A DNA stretch of 64,000 nucleotides from Pasteurella skyensis (GTDB taxonomy: Bacteria; Pseudomonadota; Gammaproteobacteria; Enterobacterales; Pasteurellaceae). The position numbers and the translations under genes are program-made. This document shows positions 8,729-45,307 of the stretch, piece by piece. The DNA lies in contig NZ_CP016180.1 in the NCBI RefSeq assembly GCF_013377295.1, positions 310,001 through 374,000 on the forward strand, read 5' to 3'. The notes beneath the pieces are model-generated. The model saw only the letters and a list, made by a program, of their open reading frames with translations, was not told where the DNA came from and did no database searches. Position 1 is the first letter of the stretch. Every line of letters begins with the position of its first letter.

Positions 8729-8786
8729 GCGGGACGACCGCAGACTTTTATCTATTAATTTTAGGAGTTAATAATAATTATTATTC

Positions 8787-8890
8787 GTAGGGGAGGATTG
8801 AATGAGCGTAGCGAATGGAATATCCTCCCGAAAAATATAGATTTACGAGCGGGAGCATATACGCAAACAAGTTTGCTAATACTCCCCTAC
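8787..8890. repeat. Family B palindromic element (BIME-like)
   Basis: A 104-bp element starts GTAGGGGAG and ends CTCCCCTAC. It contains two hairpins, GGGAGGAT...ATCCTCCC and GGGAGCAT...ATACTCCC, in opposite orientation. The same element recurs at 39978, 44062, 44368 and 44674, and as a half copy at 28149. It lies between the CdsA-like and PlsC-like genes and may limit or stabilise their joint transcript. Confidence 0.85.
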
Positions 8891-8955
8891 GTTAATTAAT
8901 TTAACTAATTGATTTTTATTGTATTTTAAGTGTTGTTTTACTATGAGAGGTTAAG

Positions 8956-29751: not shown

Positions 29752-29866
29752 AGTGCAAAAACACCTAATGCTTCGACAGGCTCAGCAACCGGTGTTTGGC
29801 TAGTTCTGTGATTGACATCTTTTGCCTCGATATTTCCGTTCTCGGTTACTGAGCCCGTCGAAGATA
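29752..29866. repeat. Family A repeats between the GIY-YIG gene and the IS110 element
   Basis: One complete hairpin unit (AAACACCTAATGCTTCGACAG to GGTGTTTGG) is followed by a second, opposite-facing unit that breaks off after CTGAGCCCGTCGAAG near 29866. The missing remainder of that unit resumes at about 31150 on the other side of the IS110 element. Confidence 0.75.
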
Positions 29867-29976
29867 CCATTAGAAATAGCAAGAAAATTTTTTATTTTTT
29901 AACATTAATAATGGTGCCTTATATTTTTAGAGAATATTTTATCCTCTAAAATCTGTATAACATTTATTGTTAATAA

Positions 29977-30960
29977 CTACATTGTCTTTTGGTGTAAACT
30001 TGCATCAAAAGGCATTTGATTTTTTAATACTGTTTGAGCAATGGCCACTAATTTACGCATTAAAGCCACGATAATCACTTTTTTATCCTTCCCTTTTGCC
30101 AGTAAATTATCAACAAAAGTCTTATAAATTCTATCTTTATAATTCCCAAAACTATAGGCAACCGCAGGCATAAATAAAATTTTACGAATATCCGTTTGTC
30201 CAATTTTTGATATTCTCGGTTTACCATTTATGCTACTGCCTGATTGATGGTGCATAGGAGTTAAGCCTGCATAAGCAGCTGCAGCTTTTCCATTTTTAAA
30301 ACGAGAGCCATCGCCAAGATAAGCCAGTAACCAAGCAACACTTTTTTTACCTAATCCTGGAATGCTTGATAATAATTTTGCATTTTGTTTGAGCATTGTA
30401 TCCGTTTTGATTGTTTCATCAATTTGTTTTTCAAAAGCTTTTATTTCTTCACGCAAGAAATTAGCCAAACGCTCTGCACTTGCAATACTTTCGCTATCTG
30501 ACATCATTTTAATCCGAGTACGTTCTTTTTGCTCAGCTTGTTTAAGATGTTCTAGCTGTCGTAATCTTAATAATAATGCACGTTGAGCCTTTGGTGGTGG
30601 TTGCCACGCTTGTGGTTGCTCTTTTGCCGCAAAACGAGCAATAAGCATTGCGTCTATCTTATCGGTCTTATTTCTAAGATTTTGTCCAATGCCATAAGCC
30701 TTGATACATTTAGGGTTAATCACGCTTACTTTTGCCTTTTTATCATAGAGAAAATAGGCTAATTCTTCCCAATAAATACCAGTTGCTTCCATTACAACGT
30801 GTAGATTTTGAGTATCTTTGTTAATCCATTTTAATAATGATTCAAACCCTTTTTTATCATTATCAAAAGTATTATGTAGGGCTTTTTTATTTTCTTTATA
30901 AATCGCTACATCAAACTTCTTGCAAGCAATATCAATACCAATGTAGAATGTGTTATTCAT
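29977..30960 (-). CDS. IS110 family transposase
   Basis: The 327-residue recombinase has the N-terminal RuvC-like DEDD domain: D10 in FYIGIDIA, E58 in VMEATGIYWEE, and D100 and D103 in KTDKIDAMLIARF. The C-terminal Tnp_20 domain has SSIPGLGKKSVAW and the catalytic serine in HQSGSSING (residues 238-246). All catalytic residues are intact, so the enzyme is probably active. IS110 enzymes use a bridge RNA from the element's non-coding end to choose target and donor DNA. The start follows TTGAGGAACAAAT. Confidence 0.96.
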   Translation of the reverse strand: MNNTFYIGIDIACKKFDVAIYKENKKALHNTFDNDKKGFESLLKWINKDTQNLHVVMEATGIYWEELAYFLYDKKAKVSVINPKCIKAYGIGQNLRNKTDKIDAMLIARFAAKEQPQAWQPPPKAQRALLLRLRQLEHLKQAEQKERTRIKMMSDSESIASAERLANFLREEIKAFEKQIDETIKTDTMLKQNAKLLSSIPGLGKKSVAWLLAYLGDGSRFKNGKAAAAYAGLTPMHHQSGSSINGKPRISKIGQTDIRKILFMPAVAYSFGNYKDRIYKTFVDNLLAKGKDKKVIIVALMRKLVAIAQTVLKNQMPFDASLHQKTM

Positions 30961-31140
30961 ATTTGTTCCTCAACCTTGTTTATACGAGCTAGCACTAATA
31001 GTGTTACTCAGGATACCATTCGGGATGAATATGGAGTTGAAGTAGGTTATATCTTCGACACAGGTTTTTAACCTAAGGATATTTACAAGCTCTACTTCAA
31101 CAGCCCTACTGTTATTTATAATAGTAGGGCTTTTTTATAA
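30961..31140 (-). ncRNA. Candidate IS110 bridge RNA region
   Basis: The 180 bases upstream of the transposase are rich in paired segments on the minus strand. AGCCCTACT/AGTAGGGCT is near the outer end, then GTTGAAGTAG/CTACTTCAAC encloses a large internal loop with an AGGTT/AACCT hairpin, then GAG...CACTA/TTAGTG...CTC. A stem with a large internal loop is the layout known for IS110 bridge RNAs, whose loops pair with target and donor. No homology search was possible. The outermost hairpin also has a T run on the plus strand and could act as a terminator in that direction. Confidence 0.45.
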
Positions 31141-31149
31141 TACAAGTAT

Positions 31150-31240
31150 AAGAGAACGTTCACTCAACGAATTCTGTGCGCAAACACCTAACACTTCGAC
31201 AAGCTCAGTGAACGGTATTTGGGTCGCTCATCAACCGGTA
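31150..31240. repeat. Family A repeat right of the IS110 element
   Basis: The sequence AGAACGTTCACTCAACGAATT followed by AAACACCTAACACTTCGACAA and GAACGGTATTTGG completes the family A pattern broken by the IS110 insertion. It runs up to about 75 bases before the helicase start. Confidence 0.7.
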
Positions 31241-31315: not shown

Positions 31316-32512
31316 TTGCAATTTAATCAACTCGGGTTATCAGAACCCATCTTAAAAGCCGTAACAGAACAAGGCTACCAAACCCCTACACCGATTCAAC
31401 AACAATCTATCCCAGCGATTCTGTCTGGCAAAGATGTAATGGCAGCGGCTCAAACAGGCACAGGAAAAACAGCTGGGTTTACCTTACCTATTTTAGAACT
31501 ACTGAGTAAAGGACAAAAAGTCAAATCGAATCAAGCGAGGGTGTTAATTTTAACGCCAACACGTGAACTTGCGGCTCAAATTGCCGAAAATGTCAGCCTT
31601 TATAGCCAATATTTACCGTTAAAATCAGCAGTGGTGTTTGGGGGCGTAAAAATTAACCCACAAATGCAAAAATTACGAGGCGGTGCCGATATCCTCGTGG
31701 CAACTCCTGGAAGATTACTCGATTTATACCAACAAAATGCGATTCGTTTTGATCATTTAGAAGTATTGGTATTAGACGAAGCAGACAGAATGTTAGATAT
31801 GGGATTTATCCACGATATCAAACGTATCATCAAATTACTGCCACCAAAACGTCAGAATTTATTATTTTCAGCGACTTTTTCCACTGAAATTAGAACCCTT
31901 GCAAAAGGACTGATTCATAACCCAATAGAAATCGCAGTCAGCCCTGAAAACACAACAGCAGAAAAAGTCAGCCAAGTGATTTATCCTGTAGATAAAAAAA
32001 GCAAAGCCGCCTTATTAATAAAATTGATTAAAGACAATAATTGGCAACAAGTGCTTGTTTTTACTCGTACTAAACACGGTGCAAATAAACTCACCAAACA
32101 GCTAGAAAAAGCCAATATTCCTGCTTCAGCCATTCACGGCAATAAAGGTCAAGGTGCAAGAACTCGTGCCTTAGCAGAATTTAAAGCAGGGGATATTCAA
32201 GTCTTAGTAGCAACAGATATTGCAGCCAGAGGCATTGATATTGACCTACTTCCCCACGTGATAAACTTTGATTTACCCAATGTGTCAGAAGACTACGTGC
32301 ACCGAATTGGACGTACAGGACGAGCAGGTTCATCAGGCAAAGCGATCTCATTAGTCTGTGCCGATGAATTGGATGATTTAAAAGGTATTGAACGTTTAAT
32401 TCAACAAGTATTACCAAGAGAAAGTGTCAAAGGTTTTGAACCTCAAGAAACCTTACCTATTACTGTATTAGATACTCGTCCAATTCGTAAAAGACCGAAG
32501 AAAAGAAAGTAA
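31316..32512 (+). CDS. rhlE: DEAD-box ATP-dependent RNA helicase, RhlE type
   Basis: This cytoplasmic RNA helicase has all DEAD-box motifs: Q-motif [57 protein letters not shown] and HRIGRTGR. It ends in a basic tail [11 protein letters not shown]. RhlE proteins act in ribosome assembly or RNA decay. There is no ATG start in the right place. A TTG at 31316 gives [16 protein letters not shown], matching the usual RhlE N-terminus (398 residues). A frame from GTG at 31208 would translate the family A repeat. The ribosome site is weak. Confidence 0.88.
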
Positions 32513-33178
32513 ATGAGTTCCGTGCGCAAACACCTAACACTTCGATATTTCGACAGGCTCAATAACCGAGCTCAGCAACCGGTGTTTGGGTAAGTTCAGT
32601 GATTGATGTCTCGCTTCGGCTCCCTGAGCCTGTCGAAGGGAAGAGAAGTGCTGACTAAGTGAGTTCTGTGCAAAAACACCTCACACTTCGATATTTCGAC
32701 AGGCTCAATAACCGAGCTCAGCAACCGGTGTTTGGGTAAGTTCAGTGATCGATGTCTCGCTTCGGCTCCCTGAACCTGTCGAAGGGAAGAGAAGCGTTTA
32801 CTAAACGAATTCCGTGCAAAAACACCTCACACTTCGATATTTCGACAGGCTCAATAACCGAGCTCAGCAACCGGTGTTTGGGTAAGTTCAGTGATCGATG
32901 TCTCGCTTCGGCTCCCTGAGCCTGTCGAAGGGAAGAGAAGCGTTTACTAAACGAATTCCGTGCAAAAACACCTAACACTTCGATATTTCGACAGGCTCAA
33001 TAACCGAGCTCAGTGACCGGTGTTTGGGTAAGTTCAGTGATCGATGTCTCGCTTCGGCTCCCTGTGCCTGTCGAAGGGAAGAGAAGCGTTCACTCAACGA
33101 ATTCCGTGCGAAAACACCTCACACTTCGATATTTCGACAGGCTCAATAATCGAGCTCAGCAACCAGTGTTTTGATATC
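32513..33178. repeat. 146-bp tandem array of family A units
   Basis: TTCGATATTTCGACAGGCTC recurs at 32541, 32687, 32833, 32979 and 33125, an exact period of 146 bases. Each unit contains two inverted hairpins: one with GACAGGCTCAATAACCGAGC, bounded by AACACC and GGTGTTT, and one with CGGCTCCCTGAGCCTGTCG. Copies differ by only a few bases, which points to recent expansion. It lies between rhlE and the adhesin gene and encodes nothing. Confidence 0.95.
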
Positions 33179-33564
33179 ACACAAAAAGATCGATATAAAG
33201 ATTGCAATAGGGATCACATAAACCAATCAAAATATAAATTAAAATTATACTTATTTTGTAGATTAACACTTGATACAAAATTATTGAATATTGACAGTGA
33301 TAGTAAATTTATTCGTGGTAATCGTATGCTAACAAACAAAGGAATAATTTAGTGAAAGCTAAATATAGGTTAGTAGGTTAAATGGAGTTTCCAGTAATAA
33401 ATTTGATTCTCACCTTGAGAACTAAAGTGAATATGCTTTAATATAGTTGCAATTAAATTGTAACTATTTGTAATACAAGTCCAAACTGCAACTAGAGTTG
33501 ATTTTAAATACCGTATTTAAAACTATCTATCTGTAATACTTATTTTTTTCAGAGGACTAGTATT
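33179..33564. other. Leader region of the adhesin gene
   Basis: These 386 bases follow the tandem array. The first 170 contain an open plus-strand frame (ending at 33352, final residues FIRGNRMLTNKGII) with protein-like composition but no start outside the repeat. It may be the tail of a gene cut by repeat expansion. The remainder is AT-rich and presumably holds the adhesin promoter. The ribosome site AGAGGACTAG is at 33551-33560. Confidence 0.4.
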
Positions 33565-36500
33565 ATGAATAACATCTATAAAGTTGTGTTTAACGCAGTA
33601 ACACAAACCTTCGTCGCCGTTAGCGAATTAGCCAAAGGCAGAACAAAAACGCAGGCATCAAAAACCAATAAACCCCAATTAAAACAAGCGGGTACATTCT
33701 TACCAAAATTTGCAAAAATTGCTTTGGCAATTTCAATGTTGTCTATATTTAGTTCACAGGCAATGGCTGTCACTGATGCAGAATTTAACGCATTAAAAGC
33801 AAGATTAGAAAAATTAGAGGGTATAAACAATACTGCTACAGGGAATAATGCTGGAGTAATCTTCGGAAAGAATAACAAAGCTACAGAAAATAGAGCAGTG
33901 GTTATCGGAGGACAAAATAACGTAGCAACATCGGTTGATTCTGTGGTTATCGGAGGAAAACATAACTCAGCAACAGGGCAACATTCTGTCGCTATGGGCG
34001 ATGTTTCATTAGCCTCTGGTAGGGCTTCTTTCGCAGGTGGTGGTTCACTTGCTAACTGGGCACAAATTGACGAAATTGCAAAAAATCTAGAGTCCAAAAC
34101 AATCGATGACTATGCAGATATTTTATCAACAGATGAGAAAGATAAAATAAACGCTGGCACTGCAACCACTGAAGAAAAAGCATTAATGAAAATCAAGATA
34201 GCAAAATCACAATCATTCTTAAATGTAGGTGCTGTTGCTTCTGGTGAGAGTGCATTTGCATTTGGAACAGCTGCGAGAGCAGAAGGGATACGGTCATTTG
34301 CTCTTGGTGAAAATAATAGAGCATTAGCAAATAATAGTGTGGCTTTGGGTGGCTCAGATAATACAGCTGAGGGAGCCCATTCTATAGCAATTGGTTCTGC
34401 TGGGATTGCCTCAGGATTTACTGCCATAACTTTAGGCTATGGTGCACAGGCTGAGGGCGTAGGATCATTGGCTACTGGTGGTGTGTATAATAGTCCATTA
34501 GATCAATTCGTTTTACGTAATGATTTTGATACCGTTAAAGCTAAATACAGCGAAGCCTTTACGCCAGAAGATATAACAGAAATCAATGCGATAACAGATA
34601 AAAAGTTACAAAAGAAAGCAATTTATAGAAAATTAGCGTCGTTTAAAGGAAAAAATGGTGGTAAAGCCTATACAGCAGGTTCAATGGCACTCGGAACAGG
34701 AACAGTTGCTGGTGTGAAAGGTGGAGACCAAGAGGCTGTGGCAATGGGTTACCGTGCTAAAGCTATTAAAGACAAAACCCTTGCTCTAGGTTTTGATGCT
34801 GTTGCAAATAATGCAAATTCAGTGGCATTAGGTCAAGGTGCAGAAACCAAAGCTTCCGACGATATTGCAGGGGCAACGGTAAGTGGTATTCAATATGGCA
34901 ACTTTGCAGGTACACCAAATGGCGTAGTGTCAATTGGTAAAGAAGGTGCTGAAAAACAGTTAGTGAATGTAGCTGCGGGTGCTGTGACAGCAACCTCAAC
35001 CGATGCTATTAACGGTTCGCAACTGTTTGCAACTAATACCGTATTAGGTAATGTCGCAAAATCAGTTAAAAACAACTTTGGTGGTAATGCAGCAATAGAT
35101 GAAAATGGCAATATTACTTTCACCGATATCGGTGGTACAGGTAAAGGCACGATTCACGAAGCCATTGGTGATGTAAAAACAGCCGCTGATGCAGCAAAAC
35201 TGAGATCGCTTCTAAATAAAATTAAACTAAATAACAAAGCGGATAAAAACGCGGGTAATTTAAGTGATACAGATATTGCCGCTTGGACAACTAAGTTAAA
35301 CACAGGCGCAGATTTAACCACGCCAACAGGCAAGTTAGTTACCGATACGCAAGTTAAAACAGCGTTAGATACTAAACTTGATTCCAATGCTATTACGAGT
35401 TCAGATCAATCTATCAGCATTGATACGACAACAACAGCAGGAAAAGTTGACTTAAAAGTCAATGTGGATAACTCAACTCTTGAAGTGGCAAATGGCAAAG
35501 TGTCAGTTAAAAATGGCGGTATTTCAACGGATAAACTAGCTAATGATGCGGTGACAGAAGCTAAGATTGCGGATGCGTTATTAACAGAGTTAAAAGCGAA
35601 ATCACGTGAAAAAGTTCAAGGCACATCAAAAGAGATCGTCGTCACTGCGAATAACGCCGATGAAAATGCGGATGGCAGAGTATTTACTGTTGCCTTAGCG
35701 GATGAAGTGAAAGCTAAATTAGATAATTTAGCGACTAACCCAAATACAACCTATCTTAATAGAGAAGGTTCAAACATTGGTGGCAACAAAGCAATCTTTG
35801 GAAAAAATGTGGGTAAATCTATCATCAGTGATGCTAATGGTACACAACTCGTTCAAGAGAAAGCGGTAAAAGCTTATGTTGATGCCGTTGACACTAAAGT
35901 GACAGATTTAGGTACTACGGTAACTAGTTTAGGTGATACATTAACTACTGAAATCACAAAAGTAGGCAAAACCTCGAAAGAAGAAGTGAAAGTGGTAGCT
36001 GATAGTGGAATTACTGTCGCAACCACGCCAGCAACGGATGAAAAAGGTGCTATCTTCACTTTAGATTTAGATGCAGCGAAAGTGAAAGACATCACTGGAA
36101 CCACTAACCTTGCAACAGAATACTTAAAAGTAGACGGTTCTAATATGGGTGGTGACGCCGCTAAATCTACCTTCGGTTCGGTAGTAGGTAAAGCTGTCAT
36201 TGATGATGAAAATGGCACTCAGCTTGTTCAAGAGAAAGCGGTTAAAACCTATGTTGATACAGCGATTGATAAAGTTGGAAAAGCCAAAGACGGTAAAGAC
36301 GGTTATATCGGCGTTGACGGCAAAGACGGCATAAATGGTGTTGGCATTGACGGAAAAGACGGTATTTCAGTTAAAGGTGCTAAAGGTGAAGTGGGTATCA
36401 ACGGAAACGATGGTATTTCTATTAAAGGCGAAGACGGCAAAGATGGCTCAATCGGCTTAAGTGGAAAAGACGGTATTACCGTTAAAGGAAAAGACGGTAA

Positions 36501-37167
36501 AGATGGCGTCACTATCAGAGGTGAAGATGGTGCGAATGGAACCAACGGAGTAATCGGACTTAATGGCCACGATGGTATTGACGGTCAAAATGGAAAAGCT
36601 GTTTCAGCCGACATCAAAGTGGTTAATGGTAGACCAGGCGTTGATGGAACAGATGGTTTAACACGCGTTGTTTACGAAGATAAAGCAGGCGTCACACATA
36701 CTGTTGCAACCTTTGATGATGGCTTAGTGTTTAAAGGTGATGTGGGTGAGAAAGTCACTCGTAAGCTCAATGACACCTTAAATATTAAAGGTGGCGTAAC
36801 AGCGGCAGATAAACTGACGGATAACAATATTGGTGTGGTTAACGATGGTGCGAATGGTTTAGCGGTTAAACTGGCAAAAGAATTAACAGGCTTAAATTCA
36901 ATCGTATTTGGTGCAGCGAAAGGAGATAATGTTGTTTCCATCTCTGCTGAAGGTGTGAATGCAGGTGGTAAGAGAATAACCAATGTAGGGGACGCCACAG
37001 CAGATACCGATGCAGTTAACTACAAACAGTTAAAAGCTATCGAAACAGCGGTTGTTAATGCAGGTGCAGGACTGAAATTCACAGGTAATACCGCAGATGA
37101 AGTTGCTGTTGCTGCAGGTAATACTTTAGTCGTTGAAGGACAAAAAGGAAGTTGCCACAATGGATGA
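33565..37167 (+). CDS. Trimeric autotransporter adhesin, N-terminal part (frameshifted)
   Basis: This is the passenger of a type Vc secreted adhesin. Residues 1-68 form an extended signal peptide (ESPR start MNNIYKVVFNAVTQTFVAVS, cleavage after SSQAMA). YadA-like head repeats follow (GNNAGVIFGKNN, AVVIGGQNN, SVAMGD), then stalk and neck modules (DAINGSQLFAT, DAVNYKQLK). A collagen-like Gly-x-y tract with GKDGKDG repeats spans residues 907-1015. The frame stops at 37165-37167 in VVEGQKGSCHNG, just where the next module begins in another frame. Removing one G near 37140 would restore LVVEDKKEVATMDDGL and fuse it to the downstream part. Confidence 0.9.
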   Translation: MNNIYKVVFNAVTQTFVAVSELAKGRTKTQASKTNKPQLKQAGTFLPKFAKIALAISMLSIFSSQAMAVTDAEFNALKARLEKLEGINNTATGNNAGVIFGKNNKATENRAVVIGGQNNVATSVDSVVIGGKHNSATGQHSVAMGDVSLASGRASFAGGGSLANWAQIDEIAKNLESKTIDDYADILSTDEKDKINAGTATTEEKALMKIKIAKSQSFLNVGAVASGESAFAFGTAARAEGIRSFALGENNRALANNSVALGGSDNTAEGAHSIAIGSAGIASGFTAITLGYGAQAEGVGSLATGGVYNSPLDQFVLRNDFDTVKAKYSEAFTPEDITEINAITDKKLQKKAIYRKLASFKGKNGGKAYTAGSMALGTGTVAGVKGGDQEAVAMGYRAKAIKDKTLALGFDAVANNANSVALGQGAETKASDDIAGATVSGIQYGNFAGTPNGVVSIGKEGAEKQLVNVAAGAVTATSTDAINGSQLFATNTVLGNVAKSVKNNFGGNAAIDENGNITFTDIGGTGKGTIHEAIGDVKTAADAAKLRSLLNKIKLNNKADKNAGNLSDTDIAAWTTKLNTGADLTTPTGKLVTDTQVKTALDTKLDSNAITSSDQSISIDTTTTAGKVDLKVNVDNSTLEVANGKVSVKNGGISTDKLANDAVTEAKIADALLTELKAKSREKVQGTSKEIVVTANNADENADGRVFTVALADEVKAKLDNLATNPNTTYLNREGSNIGGNKAIFGKNVGKSIISDANGTQLVQEKAVKAYVDAVDTKVTDLGTTVTSLGDTLTTEITKVGKTSKEEVKVVADSGITVATTPATDEKGAIFTLDLDAAKVKDITGTTNLATEYLKVDGSNMGGDAAKSTFGSVVGKAVIDDENGTQLVQEKAVKTYVDTAIDKVGKAKDGKDGYIGVDGKDGINGVGIDGKDGISVKGAKGEVGINGNDGISIKGEDGKDGSIGLSGKDGITVKGKDGKDGVTIRGEDGANGTNGVIGLNGHDGIDGQNGKAVSADIKVVNGRPGVDGTDGLTRVVYEDKAGVTHTVATFDDGLVFKGDVGEKVTRKLNDTLNIKGGVTAADKLTDNNIGVVNDGANGLAVKLAKELTGLNSIVFGAAKGDNVVSISAEGVNAGGKRITNVGDATADTDAVNYKQLKAIETAVVNAGAGLKFTGNTADEVAVAAGNTLVVEGQKGSCHNG

Positions 37168-38542
37168 TGGTTTAGTTTTTGTAGGTGATACGGGAACTAA
37201 AGGTATTAAACTAAATGACACCTTAAATATCAAAGGTGGTGTAACAGCGGCAAATAAACTGACTGATGGCAACATCGGAGTGGTAGCAAGTGCAGATGGT
37301 TTAGCACTTAAATTAGCGAAAGAGCTCACAGGTATTTCGTCAATTGCTAACACAGCAGGTGGTGGAAAACTTACATTGAGTGATACAGACCATAGCGTAT
37401 CAGTAAATGGAGGTAGAATTACCAATTTAGGCGATGCCACAGCAGATACCGATGCAGTTAACTACAAACAGTTAAAAGCACTGAACAGTGGTAAAGGTAT
37501 TGATGTCACTAAATGGCAAGAAGCAATATTACCAACCATTAGCTTCTTTAGTGGTAGCACGGGTACGGGAGCAAATTATAAACAGGGTAATACTGAAGAA
37601 AAATTTGACTTAAGTAAACTTGCCTTTGACTTTGGTGATGGCTTAAAAGTGGAGAAACAACAAAGCAAAGACGGTAAACAAATCGCCCATATCACGTTAG
37701 ATAAGGACGTATTGAAAAATGACCCTAACTTTAAAGGTGCGAAAGGTGATGACGGTGCCGCTGGTGCGGATGGCGCCGATGGTCAATCTGCTTATGAGAT
37801 TTGGAAAGCATTGCCAGGTAATGACGCTAAAACACAAGATGACTTCTTAGCTGCTTTAAAAGGTGCAAAAGGCGACAAGGGTGACAAAGGCGATGCAGGC
37901 AATGGAAATGGAGGCAATGGTGCTGAAATCAAGGTTGCTGTAACAGACGATGTTGTATTAGACAAGGATAATCTCTCAAAAGAGGAAGTCGTGAGCAACA
38001 ATGGTGCCTTAAGCATTAAAGTTGGTAAAAACCTTAACGCAAAAACGGTGATGAATGGTAATGATAAACAGCTGGTTATTTCCACCACACCGGAAATCAA
38101 AGTGGATAAAGTCACTGTGGGCAATATCACCTTAAACCAATCCGGTTTAACAGTGAAAGAGGGTACTGATGTCAATATTAATATGGGTGGAAACCAAATC
38201 CACAATATTAAAGCCGGTACTGCGCCAACAGATGCGGTGAATGTTTCACAGCTTAATGAGGTGAAAAACTCTGTGGTTAATGTGGCTAATAAACTAAATG
38301 ATGTCGAGAAAGGTGCGAATGAGGGTATCTCCAGTGCAATGGCTGCCGCTGGATTGCCTCAAGCTTCTTTACCAGTTCGTAGTATGGTTTCTGCAGCAGG
38401 ATCAACCTATAAAGGTGCCGTAGGTCTTGCAATAGGAGTTTCAACAGTTTCTGATAACGGAAGATGGATCATCAAAGGTTCGGTAAACTCGAACTCTAGT
38501 GGTGATGTTGGAGCAACCTTAGGTGCAGGTTACCAATGGTAA
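37133..38542 (+). CDS. Trimeric autotransporter adhesin, C-terminal part with YadA anchor
   Basis: This frame continues the adhesin after the frameshift; its nominal TTG start at 37133 is not a real gene start. It has a second copy of the DDGLVF...LNDTLNIKGGVTAA module and a second collagen-like tract, GAKGDDGAAGADGADGQS with the phage-fibre-like SAYEIWKALPGNDAKTQDDF. The C-terminal YadA membrane anchor begins GISSAMAAAGLPQASLP and ends GAGYQW with a terminal aromatic residue. Without fusion to the signal peptide it could not be exported. Confidence 0.88.
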   Translation: MKDKKEVATMDDGLVFVGDTGTKGIKLNDTLNIKGGVTAANKLTDGNIGVVASADGLALKLAKELTGISSIANTAGGGKLTLSDTDHSVSVNGGRITNLGDATADTDAVNYKQLKALNSGKGIDVTKWQEAILPTISFFSGSTGTGANYKQGNTEEKFDLSKLAFDFGDGLKVEKQQSKDGKQIAHITLDKDVLKNDPNFKGAKGDDGAAGADGADGQSAYEIWKALPGNDAKTQDDFLAALKGAKGDKGDKGDAGNGNGGNGAEIKVAVTDDVVLDKDNLSKEEVVSNNGALSIKVGKNLNAKTVMNGNDKQLVISTTPEIKVDKVTVGNITLNQSGLTVKEGTDVNINMGGNQIHNIKAGTAPTDAVNVSQLNEVKNSVVNVANKLNDVEKGANEGISSAMAAAGLPQASLPVRSMVSAAGSTYKGAVGLAIGVSTVSDNGRWIIKGSVNSNSSGDVGATLGAGYQW

Positions 38543-39977: not shown

Positions 39978-40082
39978 GTAGGGGAGTATTAGCAAATTTA
40001 TTTGCGTATATGCTCCCGTTAGTTAATCGAGAAATAAACGGGAGGATATTCCATTCGCTACGCTCATTCAATCCTCCCCTAC
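39978..40082. repeat. Family B element after hrpA
   Basis: A full family B element (GTAGGGGAG to CTCCCCTAC, two internal hairpins) lies 27 bases from the hrpA stop codon, between the convergent ORF6N and hrpA genes. Another copy lies before the hrpA start, so hrpA is bracketed. Confidence 0.88.
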
Positions 40083-40109
40083 GGTAGTAATTCAAATAAC
40101 GGTAAATTC

Positions 40110-43100: not shown

Positions 43101-44045
43101 ACGAATTTCACGCTCGCCGTTCATAAAGATCAAAATATCGCCACGCCCTTCCGCTTGCAATTCATCAACTGCATTCAGAATACCTTGTAGCTGATCTTGA
43201 TCCTCTTCTTCCAATACAGGGCGATAACGCACTTCCACAGGATAAGTTCTGCCTGACACCTCAATAATCGGTGCATTATTAAAGTGCTTAGAAAAACGCT
43301 CAACGTCAATGGTCGCAGAGGTAATAATCACTTTTAAATCAGGGCGTTTTTTTAGAATTTGTTTTAAATAACCTAAAATAAAATCATTATTCAGACTGCG
43401 TTCGTGGGCTTCATCAATAATTAACGTGTCGTATTGATTTAGGTAACGATCCGTTTGAATTTCCGCAAGCAGAATACCATCCGTCATTAATTTAATCAGT
43501 GAGTTATTACTCACTTGATCGTTAAAACGCACTTTATAACCAACAATATCGCCCATCTCCGTTTCTAACTCTTCGGCAACACGATTTGCCACTGAGCGTG
43601 CCGCAATTCGGCGAGGCTGAGTATGACCGATTAACCCTTTAACACCACGCCCTAATTCCAAACACATTTTTGGTAGCTGAGTTGTTTTCCCAGAGCCAGT
43701 TTCCCCTGCGATAACGACAACTTGATTTTCTTGAATGGTTTTTAGGATTTCATCACGACGACTGCTGACAGGCAAATCAGGATAGGTTATTTTCAGATTT
43801 TGTAATAGTGATTTTTTATGACTAAAAAAAGCCTGTGCTGTGGAAATTGCATTTTTTATCTCAGAAGTTACCGCTTGTTTGGTTTCTTCTTTATGAATAT
43901 TAGCTAAGCCACGAATACGACCACTTAAACGACGACTATCGCTAACCGTCATTTTTTGTAACTCTTTCATTAACGCTTTTTGTTCATCACTAAGCGGTCG
44001 GATTTTTTTGTTTTTTTGTAGATTTTTTTTTGAATTTGTTTTCAT
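40110..44045 (-). CDS. hrpA: ATP-dependent RNA helicase HrpA
   Basis: HrpA is a large DEAH-box helicase acting on mRNA and stalled ribosomes. The 1311-residue length is normal. Motifs seen are GETGSGKTTQLPKMCLELGR (motif I), IIDEAHERSLNNDF (DEAH), ITSATID, TNVAETSLTIPNI and QRKGRCGR. Winged-helix and ratchet domains and the long HrpA-specific C-terminal region (DUF3418) follow. The first 50 codons with the upstream region exist in two further tandem partial copies at 44175-44657. The start ATG at 44043-44045 matches those copies. Confidence 0.96.
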   Translation of the reverse strand: MKTNSKKNLQKNKKIRPLSDEQKALMKELQKMTVSDSRRLSGRIRGLANIHKEETKQAVTSEIKNAISTAQAFFSHKKSLLQNLKITYPDLPVSSRRDEILKTIQENQVVVIAGETGSGKTTQLPKMCLELGRGVKGLIGHTQPRRIAARSVANRVAEELETEMGDIVGYKVRFNDQVSNNSLIKLMTDGILLAEIQTDRYLNQYDTLIIDEAHERSLNNDFILGYLKQILKKRPDLKVIITSATIDVERFSKHFNNAPIIEVSGRTYPVEVRYRPVLEEEDQDQLQGILNAVDELQAEGRGDILIFMNGEREIRDTADALEKQNLHLTEILPLYARLSSSEQQRIFHPSNLNRIILATNVAETSLTIPNIKYVIDTGTARISRYSYRTKVQRLPIEPISQASANQRKGRCGRISDGICIRLYSEDDFNSRPEFTDPEILRTNLAAVILQMTSLGLDDIGAFPFVDPPDSRNIQDGIKLLEELQAFQFRQTKYGQKRELTPIGRQLAQLPIDPRLARMVIAASQNGSLHEVMMIVSALSIQDPRERPQEKQQSADDKHRRFADKESDFLSFVNLWHFIRKNQKELTQNKFRRLCRQNYLNYLRVREWQDIYHQLRLTVRELKMPINTEPANYVQIHTALLTGLLSHIGMKEPEKMTYLGARNSHFSIFPSSSLFKKQPKWIMASELVETSKLWGRMVAKIEPEWIEPLALHLIKSNYSEPHWEKSKGAVIAAEKVTLYGLPIVAKRNVNFGGIDPVVSREIFIRSALVEGEWLNNYKFFKQNNRLIREVEDLEHKTRRRDILVDEETLFEFYDQRIGTEVVSSKHFDTWWKKASKKDPELLNFEKSFLINENANNVSELDFPNFWHQGNLKLKLSYQFEIGKEADGVTVHIPLPLLNQIEPQGFDWQIPGLRRELVIALIKSLPKATRRNFVPAPNYTEAFLAKAVPFEKPLLESLTYELRRMTGVSVDPELWNLEQLPAHLKITFRVINDKGKKIAESMNLDELKFMLKDKVQRSLSAVADDRIEQSGIHIWNFDQLPQFYEQKKRDFTVKAYPAIVDEKDAVGIKLFETEYEQQVAMQQGLRRLLLLNVPSPIKYLHEKLPNKAKLGLYFTPFGNVLSLIDDCIACAVDKLIEDFGGFAWNEDDFDKLKAYIRENLNEMTVDIAQQVEKILTLTFDLNKRLKGKLDFTMAFAMSDIKNQINHLIYPNFVTEMGYTKLANLQRYLTAIEKRLDKLGIDPNQDRAKMLRVEQVQNAYQQLLAKLPKSKAIPNEILEIRYMIEELRVSLFAQQLGTPYPISDKRILNLIREF

Positions 44046-44061
44046 AGTTGTATCTATAATT

Positions 44062-44164
44062 GTAGGGGAGCATTAGCAACTTGTTGCGTATATGCTCCCG
44101 CTCCATAATTGATAAATTAACGGGAGGATATTCCATTCGCTACGCTCATTCAATCCTCCCCTAC
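44062..44164. repeat. Family B element, tandem copy 1
   Basis: GTAGGGGAGCATTAGCAACT through CTCCCCTAC with two internal hairpins. It is 17 bases upstream of the hrpA start and is the first of three copies spaced exactly 306 bases apart. Confidence 0.9.
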
Positions 44165-44174
44165 GGTTTATTTT

Positions 44175-44351
44175 TCACATAATATATTGGTAATTCACAA
44201 TATGGATATTAGCCAAGCCACGAATATGTCCCGCTAAGCGATGACTATCGCTAATCGTCATTTTTTGTAACTCTTCCATTAACGCTTTTTGTTCATCGCT
44301 AAGCGGTCGGATTTTTTTGTTTTTTTGCAGATTTTTTAAATTTGTTTTCAT
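44175..44351 (-). pseudogene. Partial hrpA copy 1 (58-codon ORF)
   Basis: The frame MKTNLKNLQKNKKIRPLSDE, then ...SDSHRLAGHIRGLANIH, repeats the first 50 residues of HrpA with a few changes. It then leaves hrpA homology and ends after IVNYQYIM, where the sequence becomes a diverged copy of the transposase 3' flank. It keeps the start codon and upstream sequence of hrpA, so it may be expressed. The copy carries substitutions (for example SHRLAGH for SRRLSGR), so the duplication is not brand new. Confidence 0.85.
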
Positions 44352-44367
44352 AGTTGTATCTATAATT

Positions 44368-44470
44368 GTAGGGGAGCATTAGCAACTTGTTGCGTATATG
44401 CTCCCGCTCCATAATTGATAAATTAACGGGAGGATATTCCATTCGCTACGCTCATTCAATCCTCCCCTAC
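44368..44470. repeat. Family B element, tandem copy 2
   Basis: Essentially identical to the copy at 44062 and 306 bases away from it. It separates the two partial hrpA copies. Confidence 0.9.
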
Positions 44471-44480
44471 GGTTTATTTT

Positions 44481-44657
44481 TCACATAATATATTGGTAAT
44501 TCACAATATGGATATTAGCCAAGCCACGAATACGCCCAGCCAAACGACGACTATCGCTAATCGTCATTTTTTGTAACTCTTTCATTAACGCTTTTTGTTC
44601 ATCGCTAAGCGGTCGGATTTTTTTGTTTTTTTGCAGATTTTTTAAATTTGTTTTCAT
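44481..44657 (-). pseudogene. Partial hrpA copy 2 (58-codon ORF)
   Basis: Second partial copy of the hrpA 5' end, 306 bases from the first, with the same length, stop codon and tail IVNYQYIM. It is closer to true hrpA (SDSRRLAGRIRGLANIH) than copy 1. The two copies were therefore not made in one identical step, or copy 1 has drifted more. Confidence 0.85.
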
Positions 44658-44673
44658 AGTTGTATCTATAATT

Positions 44674-44776
44674 GTAGGGGAGCATTAGCAACTTGTTGCG
44701 TATATGCTCCCGCTCCATAATTGATAAAATAACGGGAGGATATTCCATTCGCTACGCTCATTCAATCCTCCCCTAC
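44674..44776. repeat. Family B element, tandem copy 3, next to the RAYT gene
   Basis: Third tandem family B element. It ends 30 bases from the stop codon of the REP-associated transposase. The sequence between this element and that stop is a diverged version of the sequence following copies 1 and 2, so the repeated 306-bp unit includes the transposase 3' flank. Confidence 0.9.
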
Positions 44777-44806
44777 AGTCTGTTTTTTATATAATCCATT
44801 GGTAAT

Positions 44807-45307
44807 TTATTCTTTTACATATAATTTATCTTTTTTCCAATTATATGGATTATGTTCTATGTAAGTTGCAATTTGATGATATGACACCTCATTACGAATA
44901 ATATGTTCGTAAAAACTACGTTGCCATAATTTTTTATTAAATGGTTGCCAATTATTCTTTTTTACATTTTTAATGTATTCATTTGTGGTCATAATTTTAA
45001 ACCATTGAACGATAGAAATGATATTATTATCAGTTCTATCATTTGGGCTATCAATATGTAAAATAAAATGAATATGGTTGGGCATAATAATAAAATCTAA
45101 ACAAAAAATATCTTTAAACTTAGTTTCTATATTTTGATACCATTTTTTAATCATATTCCCAGCGTCATTTAAAATAATATCATTATCAATAATGCGACCT
45201 AATAAACATTTTTGCTCATTTATACAGATCGTAACAAAATATAAGCCATTTTTACTATAATCATAACTCTGTAATCTAATGGCTTTACGTTGTGGATAGG
45301 TATTCAA
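44807..45307 (-). CDS. REP-associated tyrosine transposase (RAYT, Y1 family)
   Basis: The 166-residue single-domain Y1 transposase has RLQSYDYSKNGLYFVTICIN at residues 11-30, the HUH motif IMPNHIHFIL (H78, H80), and the catalytic tyrosine Y149 in ATYIEHNPYNW. RAYTs cut and join single-stranded palindromic REP sequences. The start is set at TTG 45307, which follows GGAG by 7 bases and lies just past the stop of the upstream DUF441 gene. The longer frame to 45484 only shadows that gene. It stands next to three family B elements, its probable substrate. Confidence 0.9.
   Translation of the reverse strand: MNTYPQRKAIRLQSYDYSKNGLYFVTICINEQKCLLGRIIDNDIILNDAGNMIKKWYQNIETKFKDIFCLDFIIMPNHIHFILHIDSPNDRTDNNIISIVQWFKIMTTNEYIKNVKKNNWQPFNKKLWQRSFYEHIIRNEVSYHQIATYIEHNPYNWKKDKLYVKE

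What the first reader, a model, noticed from the sequence alone, without database searches (positions are those of the whole stretch)
29867..31149. IS110 element inserted in a palindromic repeat, with a candidate bridge RNA
A family A unit stops at GTCGAAG near 29866 and resumes near 31150, so the element entered a repeat. All IS110 catalytic residues are intact. The 180 bases upstream of the transposase fold into several stems, one with a large internal loop, as expected for the bridge RNA that programs IS110 target choice. Targeting of REP palindromes is known for IS621. Here the loop may be programmed against family A.
Basis: partly seen in the sequence, partly recalled or inferred. Interest (0 to 1): 0.6.

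Follow-up and report, generated by a model that had tools for sequence, protein, structure and literature searches.

The report
REP-seeking IS110 with bridge RNA
This is a small jumping gene whose own guide RNA appears to steer it into a repeat scattered about 140 times through its host genome; the other half of the same guide matches a different, abundant jumping gene, so it looks like a programmable guide with two separate addresses.

Summary
A 1283-bp IS110-group element (29864-31146, transposase on the minus strand) sits in a family A palindromic repeat. The host genome has five near-identical copies. Joining the flanks of this copy restores an ordinary repeat unit, with only a CTT core shared.

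The left end encodes an IS621-like bridge RNA. A covariance model built only from 16 distant relatives finds it at E=7e-10, its only match in the window. All four copies with readable right target sides have this sequence (one by a G-U pair).

The left guide is not programmed for family A (3/9 matches, against a median of 7/9 in relatives). It matches 12/12 a site in an IS256-type transposase gene present in 22 copies. The fifth element copy borders exactly that site, with a family A half-site on its other side. So the two half-guides read two different repeat families. The RNA and family membership are secure. How the odd copy arose, and whether half a guide is enough, is inference. No transcription or activity was tested.

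The parts
29864..31146 (-). IS110-group element, 1283 bp with one copy of the CTT core (31144-31146 at LE; the second core copy is 29861-29863)
   Evidence: flank comparison of five genome copies, joined flanks equal to uninterrupted repeat units
29977..30960 (-). DEDD transposase/recombinase, 327 aa, catalytic D10 E58 D100 D103 and SGSS serine intact
   Evidence: Pfam DEDD_Tnp_IS110 1e-27 and Transposase_20 1e-21; NCBIfam 'IS110 family RNA-guided transposase' 227 bits, cut-off 140; IS621 8wt6 E=1e-65
30961..31143 (-). left non-coding end (LE, 183 nt), encodes the predicted bridge RNA
   Evidence: longer than the RE (113 nt), as in the IS110 group; fold z=-4.1
30974..31102 (-). [quoted passage not shown]
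   Evidence: covariance model from 16 relatives without the query: 43.8 bits, E=7.1e-10, the only match in the window; covariation on hits
31103..31130 (-). 5' stem-loop of the bridge RNA
31092..31101 (-). target-loop outer stem, 5' arm GUUGAAGUAG (3' arm 31036-31045)
31075..31086 (-). left target guide GUAAAUAUCCUU; identical over 12 nt to a site in an IS256-type transposase gene, poor match to family A
31062..31074 (-). inner hairpin of the target loop AGGUUAAAAACCU
31053..31060 (-). right target guide UGUCGAAG, exact complement of the family A core CTTCGACA
31012..31020 (-). left donor guide AAUGGUAUC, identical to the right end of the element (..AATGGTAT-CTT)
30975..30985 (-). right donor guide GUAUAAACAAG, discontinuous complement of the left end CTTGTATTAT
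30990..31006 (-). inner hairpin of the donor loop
29864..29976 (-). right non-coding end (RE, 113 nt; most relatives about 20 nt)
29877..29882 (-). candidate -35 box TTGCTA in RE, 17 bp from candidate -10 TATTAT in LE (31137-31142) across the circle junction
   Evidence: 9/12 consensus matches only in the joined circle, 8/12 best in the integrated form; weak
29837..29863 (-). right half of the interrupted family A unit (CTT-CGACGGGCTCAGTAACCGAGAACG), right target
31147..31158 (-). left target side of the interrupted family A unit (CGTTCTCTTATA)

Best explanation
The element is an IS110-group insertion sequence that works like IS621. It excises as a circle and joins its ends at a CTT core; a promoter across that junction makes a roughly 170-nt bridge RNA from the left end. 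The RNA's donor loop pairs with the element's own ends. Its target loop pairs with DNA at a CTT core, and recombination inserts the element without a target duplication. The right target guide (UGUCGAAG) reads the host's family A palindrome, and this long right guide is what takes the element into these repeats. The left target guide (GUAAAUAUCCU) reads a site inside an abundant IS256-type transposase gene. So one loop carries two addresses, and the fifth copy records use of the left one. Shown here: anatomy, boundaries, guide matches, RNA conservation. Inferred: transcription, circle formation, the order of events at the fifth copy, and that pairing of one half is enough in vivo.
For: Protein family and intact active site. 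Five copies; four with both flanks readable lie at the same base of family A units, with scarless joined flanks for the window copy. RNA found by a model that never saw it, E=7e-10. In relatives 22 consensus pairs, 13 with compensatory changes; on the model hits 22 of 22 pairs with two-sided changes, 0 of 500 shuffles as good, though that alignment leans to the model. Right guide complementary 8/8 to CTTCGACA in three copies and with one G-U in the window copy. In relatives the same slot follows the target: GUAG with CTAC in most, GACAG with CTGTC (L032), GGGGUCAG with CTGACCCC (L098). Left guide matches own target in 21 elements, 134 matches against 67 +/- 6.5 in permutations, 0 of 20000. Query left guide equals the IS256-type site 12/12; that site is in 22 genome places, and copy L004 abuts it exactly at the CTT.
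Against: At the family A sites used, the left guide pairs no better than at unused ones (3-4 of 7 with wobble at four sites and 2 at the L004 half-site, against 2-6). IS621 itself tolerates few mismatches, so insertion on a half match is unusual for the type. The preference for the CTCTYATM sub-class (4 of 5 sides, 11 of 74 empty sites; Fisher p=0.004) is not explained by the left guide. The junction promoter is weak. No RNA data.
Confidence: 0.9

Rival explanations
1. The left guide match to the IS256-type gene is chance. The guide is a decayed or older family A (or other repeat) guide, and copy L004 reached the IS256-type gene by an unrelated rearrangement.
For: A 12-mer can occur by chance in a 2.2-Mb AT-rich genome. 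Two of 20 relatives (L029, L034) also have a left guide matching only 3/9 of their own flank. The L004 locus is clearly rearranged.
Against: The match is not just somewhere in the genome: it lies exactly at the CTT where copy L004 ends (9 bases outside the core, about 4e-6 per flank by simple 4^-9 reckoning). The L004 junction is base-perfect on both sides.
Confidence: 0.15
2. Copy L004 arose in one guided step (pseudo-excision): the complex paired the right junction of a family A copy (donor guide and right target guide match) with an IS256-type site (left guide match), giving REP-left / element / IS256-right.
For: Three of the four half-guides match the two partners; both L004 junctions are exact at CTT; the guide spells the missing reciprocal product ISx-left/CTT/REP-right.
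Against: The reciprocal junction AAATATCCTTCGACA is absent within one mismatch from the genome. The IS256 left terminal repeat lies upstream of the repeat array, so more than one event occurred. Sister genomes are not syntenic there.
Confidence: 0.35
3. Copy L004 arose by ordinary insertion into the IS256-type gene guided by the left guide alone, followed by homologous recombination with a copy in family A.
For: Near-identical copies are good substrates for homologous recombination; explains both exact junctions.
Against: Needs insertion with no right-guide pairing beyond the core; intermediate not seen.
Confidence: 0.45
4. Site choice is made by the protein recognising the palindrome's shape, not by RNA.
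For: Some non-IS110 elements target REPs (PMC1525189).
Against: Exact guide complementarity, guide-target co-change among relatives, and published RNA-guided mechanism of the same protein family.
Confidence: 0.03

Closest known systems
IS621 of E. coli (PDB 8wt6; PMC11208160, PMC11208158)
   Same: IS110 group, left-end bridge RNA with 5' stem-loop, target loop and donor loop, CT(T) core, circle-junction promoter candidate, insertion into REP palindromes
   Different: Transposase diverged (225 bits, E=1e-65); target loop has a long 8-nt right guide for CTTCGACA instead of 4-7 nt; left guide reads another mobile element, not the REP; 113-nt right end
ISCro4 (PDB 9t56)
   Same: same recombinase family by sequence (E=2e-63)
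   Different: target and RNA not compared here
ISPpu9, ISPpu10, ISPa11 (REP-associated IS110-family elements; PMC1525189)
   Same: all copies in REP sequences
   Different: other hosts and other REP sequences; guides not compared here
ISEc21 seekRNA system (PMC11187229)
   Same: IS110 family, non-coding RNA upstream of tnp carries matches to both target strands; natural re-targeting known in the wider group
   Different: different target; no split address seen in the passages read

Membership tests
IS110 group (IS621-like) bridge-RNA insertion sequences | DEDD RuvC-like domain plus Transposase_20 domain with catalytic serine | tested here: met
IS110 group (IS621-like) bridge-RNA insertion sequences | left non-coding end longer than right end, RNA upstream of tnp (IS1111 has it downstream) | tested here: met
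   LE 183 nt, RE 113 nt; RNA model match at 30974-31102
IS110 group (IS621-like) bridge-RNA insertion sequences | bridge RNA fold: 5' stem-loop and two loops with internal guides | tested here: met
IS110 group (IS621-like) bridge-RNA insertion sequences | donor guides match the element's own ends | tested here: met
   LDG 9 nt identical to RE end; RDG discontinuous match to LE
IS110 group (IS621-like) bridge-RNA insertion sequences | both target guides match the sites used | tested here: inconclusive
   right guide 8/8 at family A; left guide 3/9 at family A but 9/9 at the IS256-type site bordering copy L004
IS110 group (IS621-like) bridge-RNA insertion sequences | scarless insertion at a CT core | tested here: met
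   joined flanks
IS110 group (IS621-like) bridge-RNA insertion sequences | promoter formed at the circle junction, RNA expressed | tested here: inconclusive
   9/12 consensus only across the junction; expression not testable
IS1111 group | bridge RNA downstream of tnp | tested here: not met
   RNA lies upstream of tnp
IS1111 group | subterminal inverted repeats of 7-17 bp | not tested
   not examined separately
REP-targeting IS | most copies in REP-like palindromic repeats | tested here: met
   4 of 5 copies on both sides, fifth on one side

The most novel reading that the evidence does not exclude
A split-address bridge RNA: the two halves of one target loop are programmed for two different repeat families of the same genome (the REP palindrome and an IS256-type transposase gene), and a match to either half is enough to start recombination. 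The loop also spells the reciprocal junction of the odd fifth copy. This suggests that bridge RNAs change address one half at a time, and that such a loop can splice two repeat families together, driving rearrangements.
Probability: 0.35. Interest if true: 0.7.

Novelty: new member of a known kind. Interest (0 to 1): 0.45.

Why it matters
It gives a natural test of how bridge RNAs are reprogrammed. Relatives show guides and targets changing together, and this element shows one half changed apart from the other. If the long right guide alone suffices, the specificity rules drawn from IS621 (both halves needed, few mismatches) do not hold across the family, which also bears on the use of these recombinases as DNA-editing tools.

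Tried and rejected
Rfam has no family for this RNA: only a sub-threshold NsiR1 match to the 5' hairpin, rejected as a terminator-like look-alike, and only two tRNAs in the window at gathering scores. No close relative in plasmids (protein search) or phages (DNA search). Left-guide pairing as the reason for choice among family A sites: tested and not supported. A full target AAATATCCTTCGACA: no copy within one mismatch in the host genome and no exact copy in 140 genomes of the family. Synteny of the L004 locus in three sister species: upstream regions unrelated, no ancestral state readable. Only one Y1-type (RAYT-like) transposase gene in the genome; whether it spreads family A is open. No structure prediction was run because a solved homologue exists.

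Full report
Observation. The transposase gene is 29977-30960 on the minus strand. Reading in its sense, the left end begins with CTTGTATTATAAAAAAGCCC and the right end is ...CTAATGGTAT followed by CTT. The genome copies share these ends. Joining the flanks of the window copy gives GTGAACGTTCTCTTATACTTCGACGGGCTCAGTAACCGAGAACGG, matching uninterrupted units elsewhere apart from scattered substitutions. Insertion is therefore scarless apart from the CTT.

Protein. Pfam and NCBIfam place the 327-aa protein in the IS110 family. The nearest solved structures are IS621 (8wt6, E=1e-65) and ISCro4 (9t56, E=2e-63). The active-site residues known from IS621 (D11, E60, D102, D105, S241) have counterparts at D10, E58, D100, D103 and the SGSS serine.

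RNA. The left end folds with z=-4.1 into a 5' stem-loop, a target loop and a donor loop, the order described for IS621. As an independent test, 16 relatives at about 40% protein identity were aligned without the query. Their consensus has 22 pairs, 13 of them with compensatory changes. The model built from them finds window 30974-31102 minus at 43.8 bits, E=7e-10, and nothing else in the window. It also finds the elements of a second genus of the family (G069), of a sister species (G112) and others. E-values from this short calibration are rough. On the aligned hits all 22 pairs have two-sided changes and no shuffle does as well, with the caveat that this alignment was fitted to the model.

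Donor guides. AAUGGUAUC (31012-31020) is identical to the right end of the element. GUAUAAACAAG (30975-30985) is a discontinuous complement of the left end, the pattern reported for IS621. The bases following the right target guide (AU) could pair with donor positions 6-7 (AT), as the published handshake guides do (inference).

Right target guide. UGUCGAAG (31053-31060) is the exact complement of CTTCGACA. It lies where relatives carry GUAG, and their targets read CTAC. Among relatives with another right target, L032 has GACAG for CTGTC and L098 has GGGGUCAG for CTGACCCC; L034 and L102 do not match well. Long right guides are reported for some IS110 elements.

Left target guide. In 21 elements the left guide slot matches its own flank with 134 of 189 bases, against 67 +/- 6.5 in permutations, 0 of 20000 as high (an earlier slot-free test gave 159 against 139 +/- 3.4, 0 of 20000). 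The median is 7/9. The query is an outlier: 3/9 at its family A sites. Its left guide slot with the core (GTAAATATCCTT) instead equals a site in the transposase gene of an IS256-type element, called ISx here (NCBIfam IS256_Zn_var, 330 bits). That site, AAATATCCTTTTAAA, occurs 22 times in this genome; the degenerate pattern that covers it occurs 0-6 times in each of the other family genomes.

The fifth copy. L004 has a family A half-site on its left (..CACCTAACA-CTT) and, on its right, CTTTTAAACATCG: the IS256-type gene cut at exactly that CTT. The intact gene reads GTAAATATC before the CTT, the query's left guide. A terminal repeat of the IS256-type element lies upstream of the repeat array at this locus, so the region has seen more than one event. 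Two histories fit: guided insertion into the IS256-type gene followed by recombination with a family A copy, or one guided pseudo-excision step that used the IS256-type site in place of the true left junction. Sister genomes do not resolve this. The composite site that would satisfy both guides was not found.

Choice among family A sites. About 140 cores match at up to one mismatch. Four of the five family A sides of the element are of the CTCTYATM type, against 11 of 74 listed empty perfect sites (p=0.004). Left-guide pairing does not separate used from unused sites, so this preference is unexplained.

Copies and age. The four complete copies differ by at most two bases from the window copy and none of the differences lies in the RNA, so the present guide was carried by a recent burst. 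The copy at 1.498-1.501 Mb is broken by a 2-kb insert inside the target-loop stem and should make no working RNA (inference).

Wider pattern. The flanks of the relatives are often palindromic: median longest arm 8 bp in the 70 bases before the left end, against 5 in random windows of the same loci, with 95th percentile 8. The clade as a whole thus tends to choose host palindromes. REP targeting by IS110 elements is established (PMC1525189, PMC11208160).

Verdict. This is a new member of the IS110/IS621 kind, with a well-supported bridge RNA whose right guide is programmed for family A. The unusual part is the left guide, which points to a second repeat family that one copy has touched. Function is inferred from sequence only.

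Noticed in passing
window 44849-45166 (-) and 43892-44917: The only Y1-type (RAYT-like) transposase gene of the genome lies beside a 306-bp tandem repeat carrying another palindromic family (CGGGAGGATATTCCATTCGC...), with single copies at 8786-8897 and 40002-40085. It may spread that family rather than family A.
   Followed up: partly
window 32510-33239: Family A units in a 146-bp tandem array of about five copies just downstream of the element.
   Followed up: no
L104:430-2430 (G000 1498.1-1500.1 kb): A 2-kb insert carrying the IS256-type element splits the fifth IS110 copy within the target-loop stem of its bridge RNA.
   Followed up: partly
G000, 22-23 places: IS256 family 'variant Zn-binding' element with about 23 copies, terminal repeats TTGGCATAGTAGACAAAAT.
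   Followed up: partly
L099, L101, L098: Relatives with near-perfect natural guide-target pairs, e.g. L099 left guide TGACCGGCCCCT identical to its flank and L098 right guide GGGGUCAG for CTGACCCC: good material for a guide-target table.
   Followed up: partly
window 29864-29976: Right end of 113 nt where relatives have about 20 nt; contains a hairpin TTTTAGAGGATAAAATATTCTCTAAAAA that may end tnp transcription.
   Followed up: no
window 33898-37479: Repeats typical of a large trimeric autotransporter-like surface protein gene.
   Followed up: no
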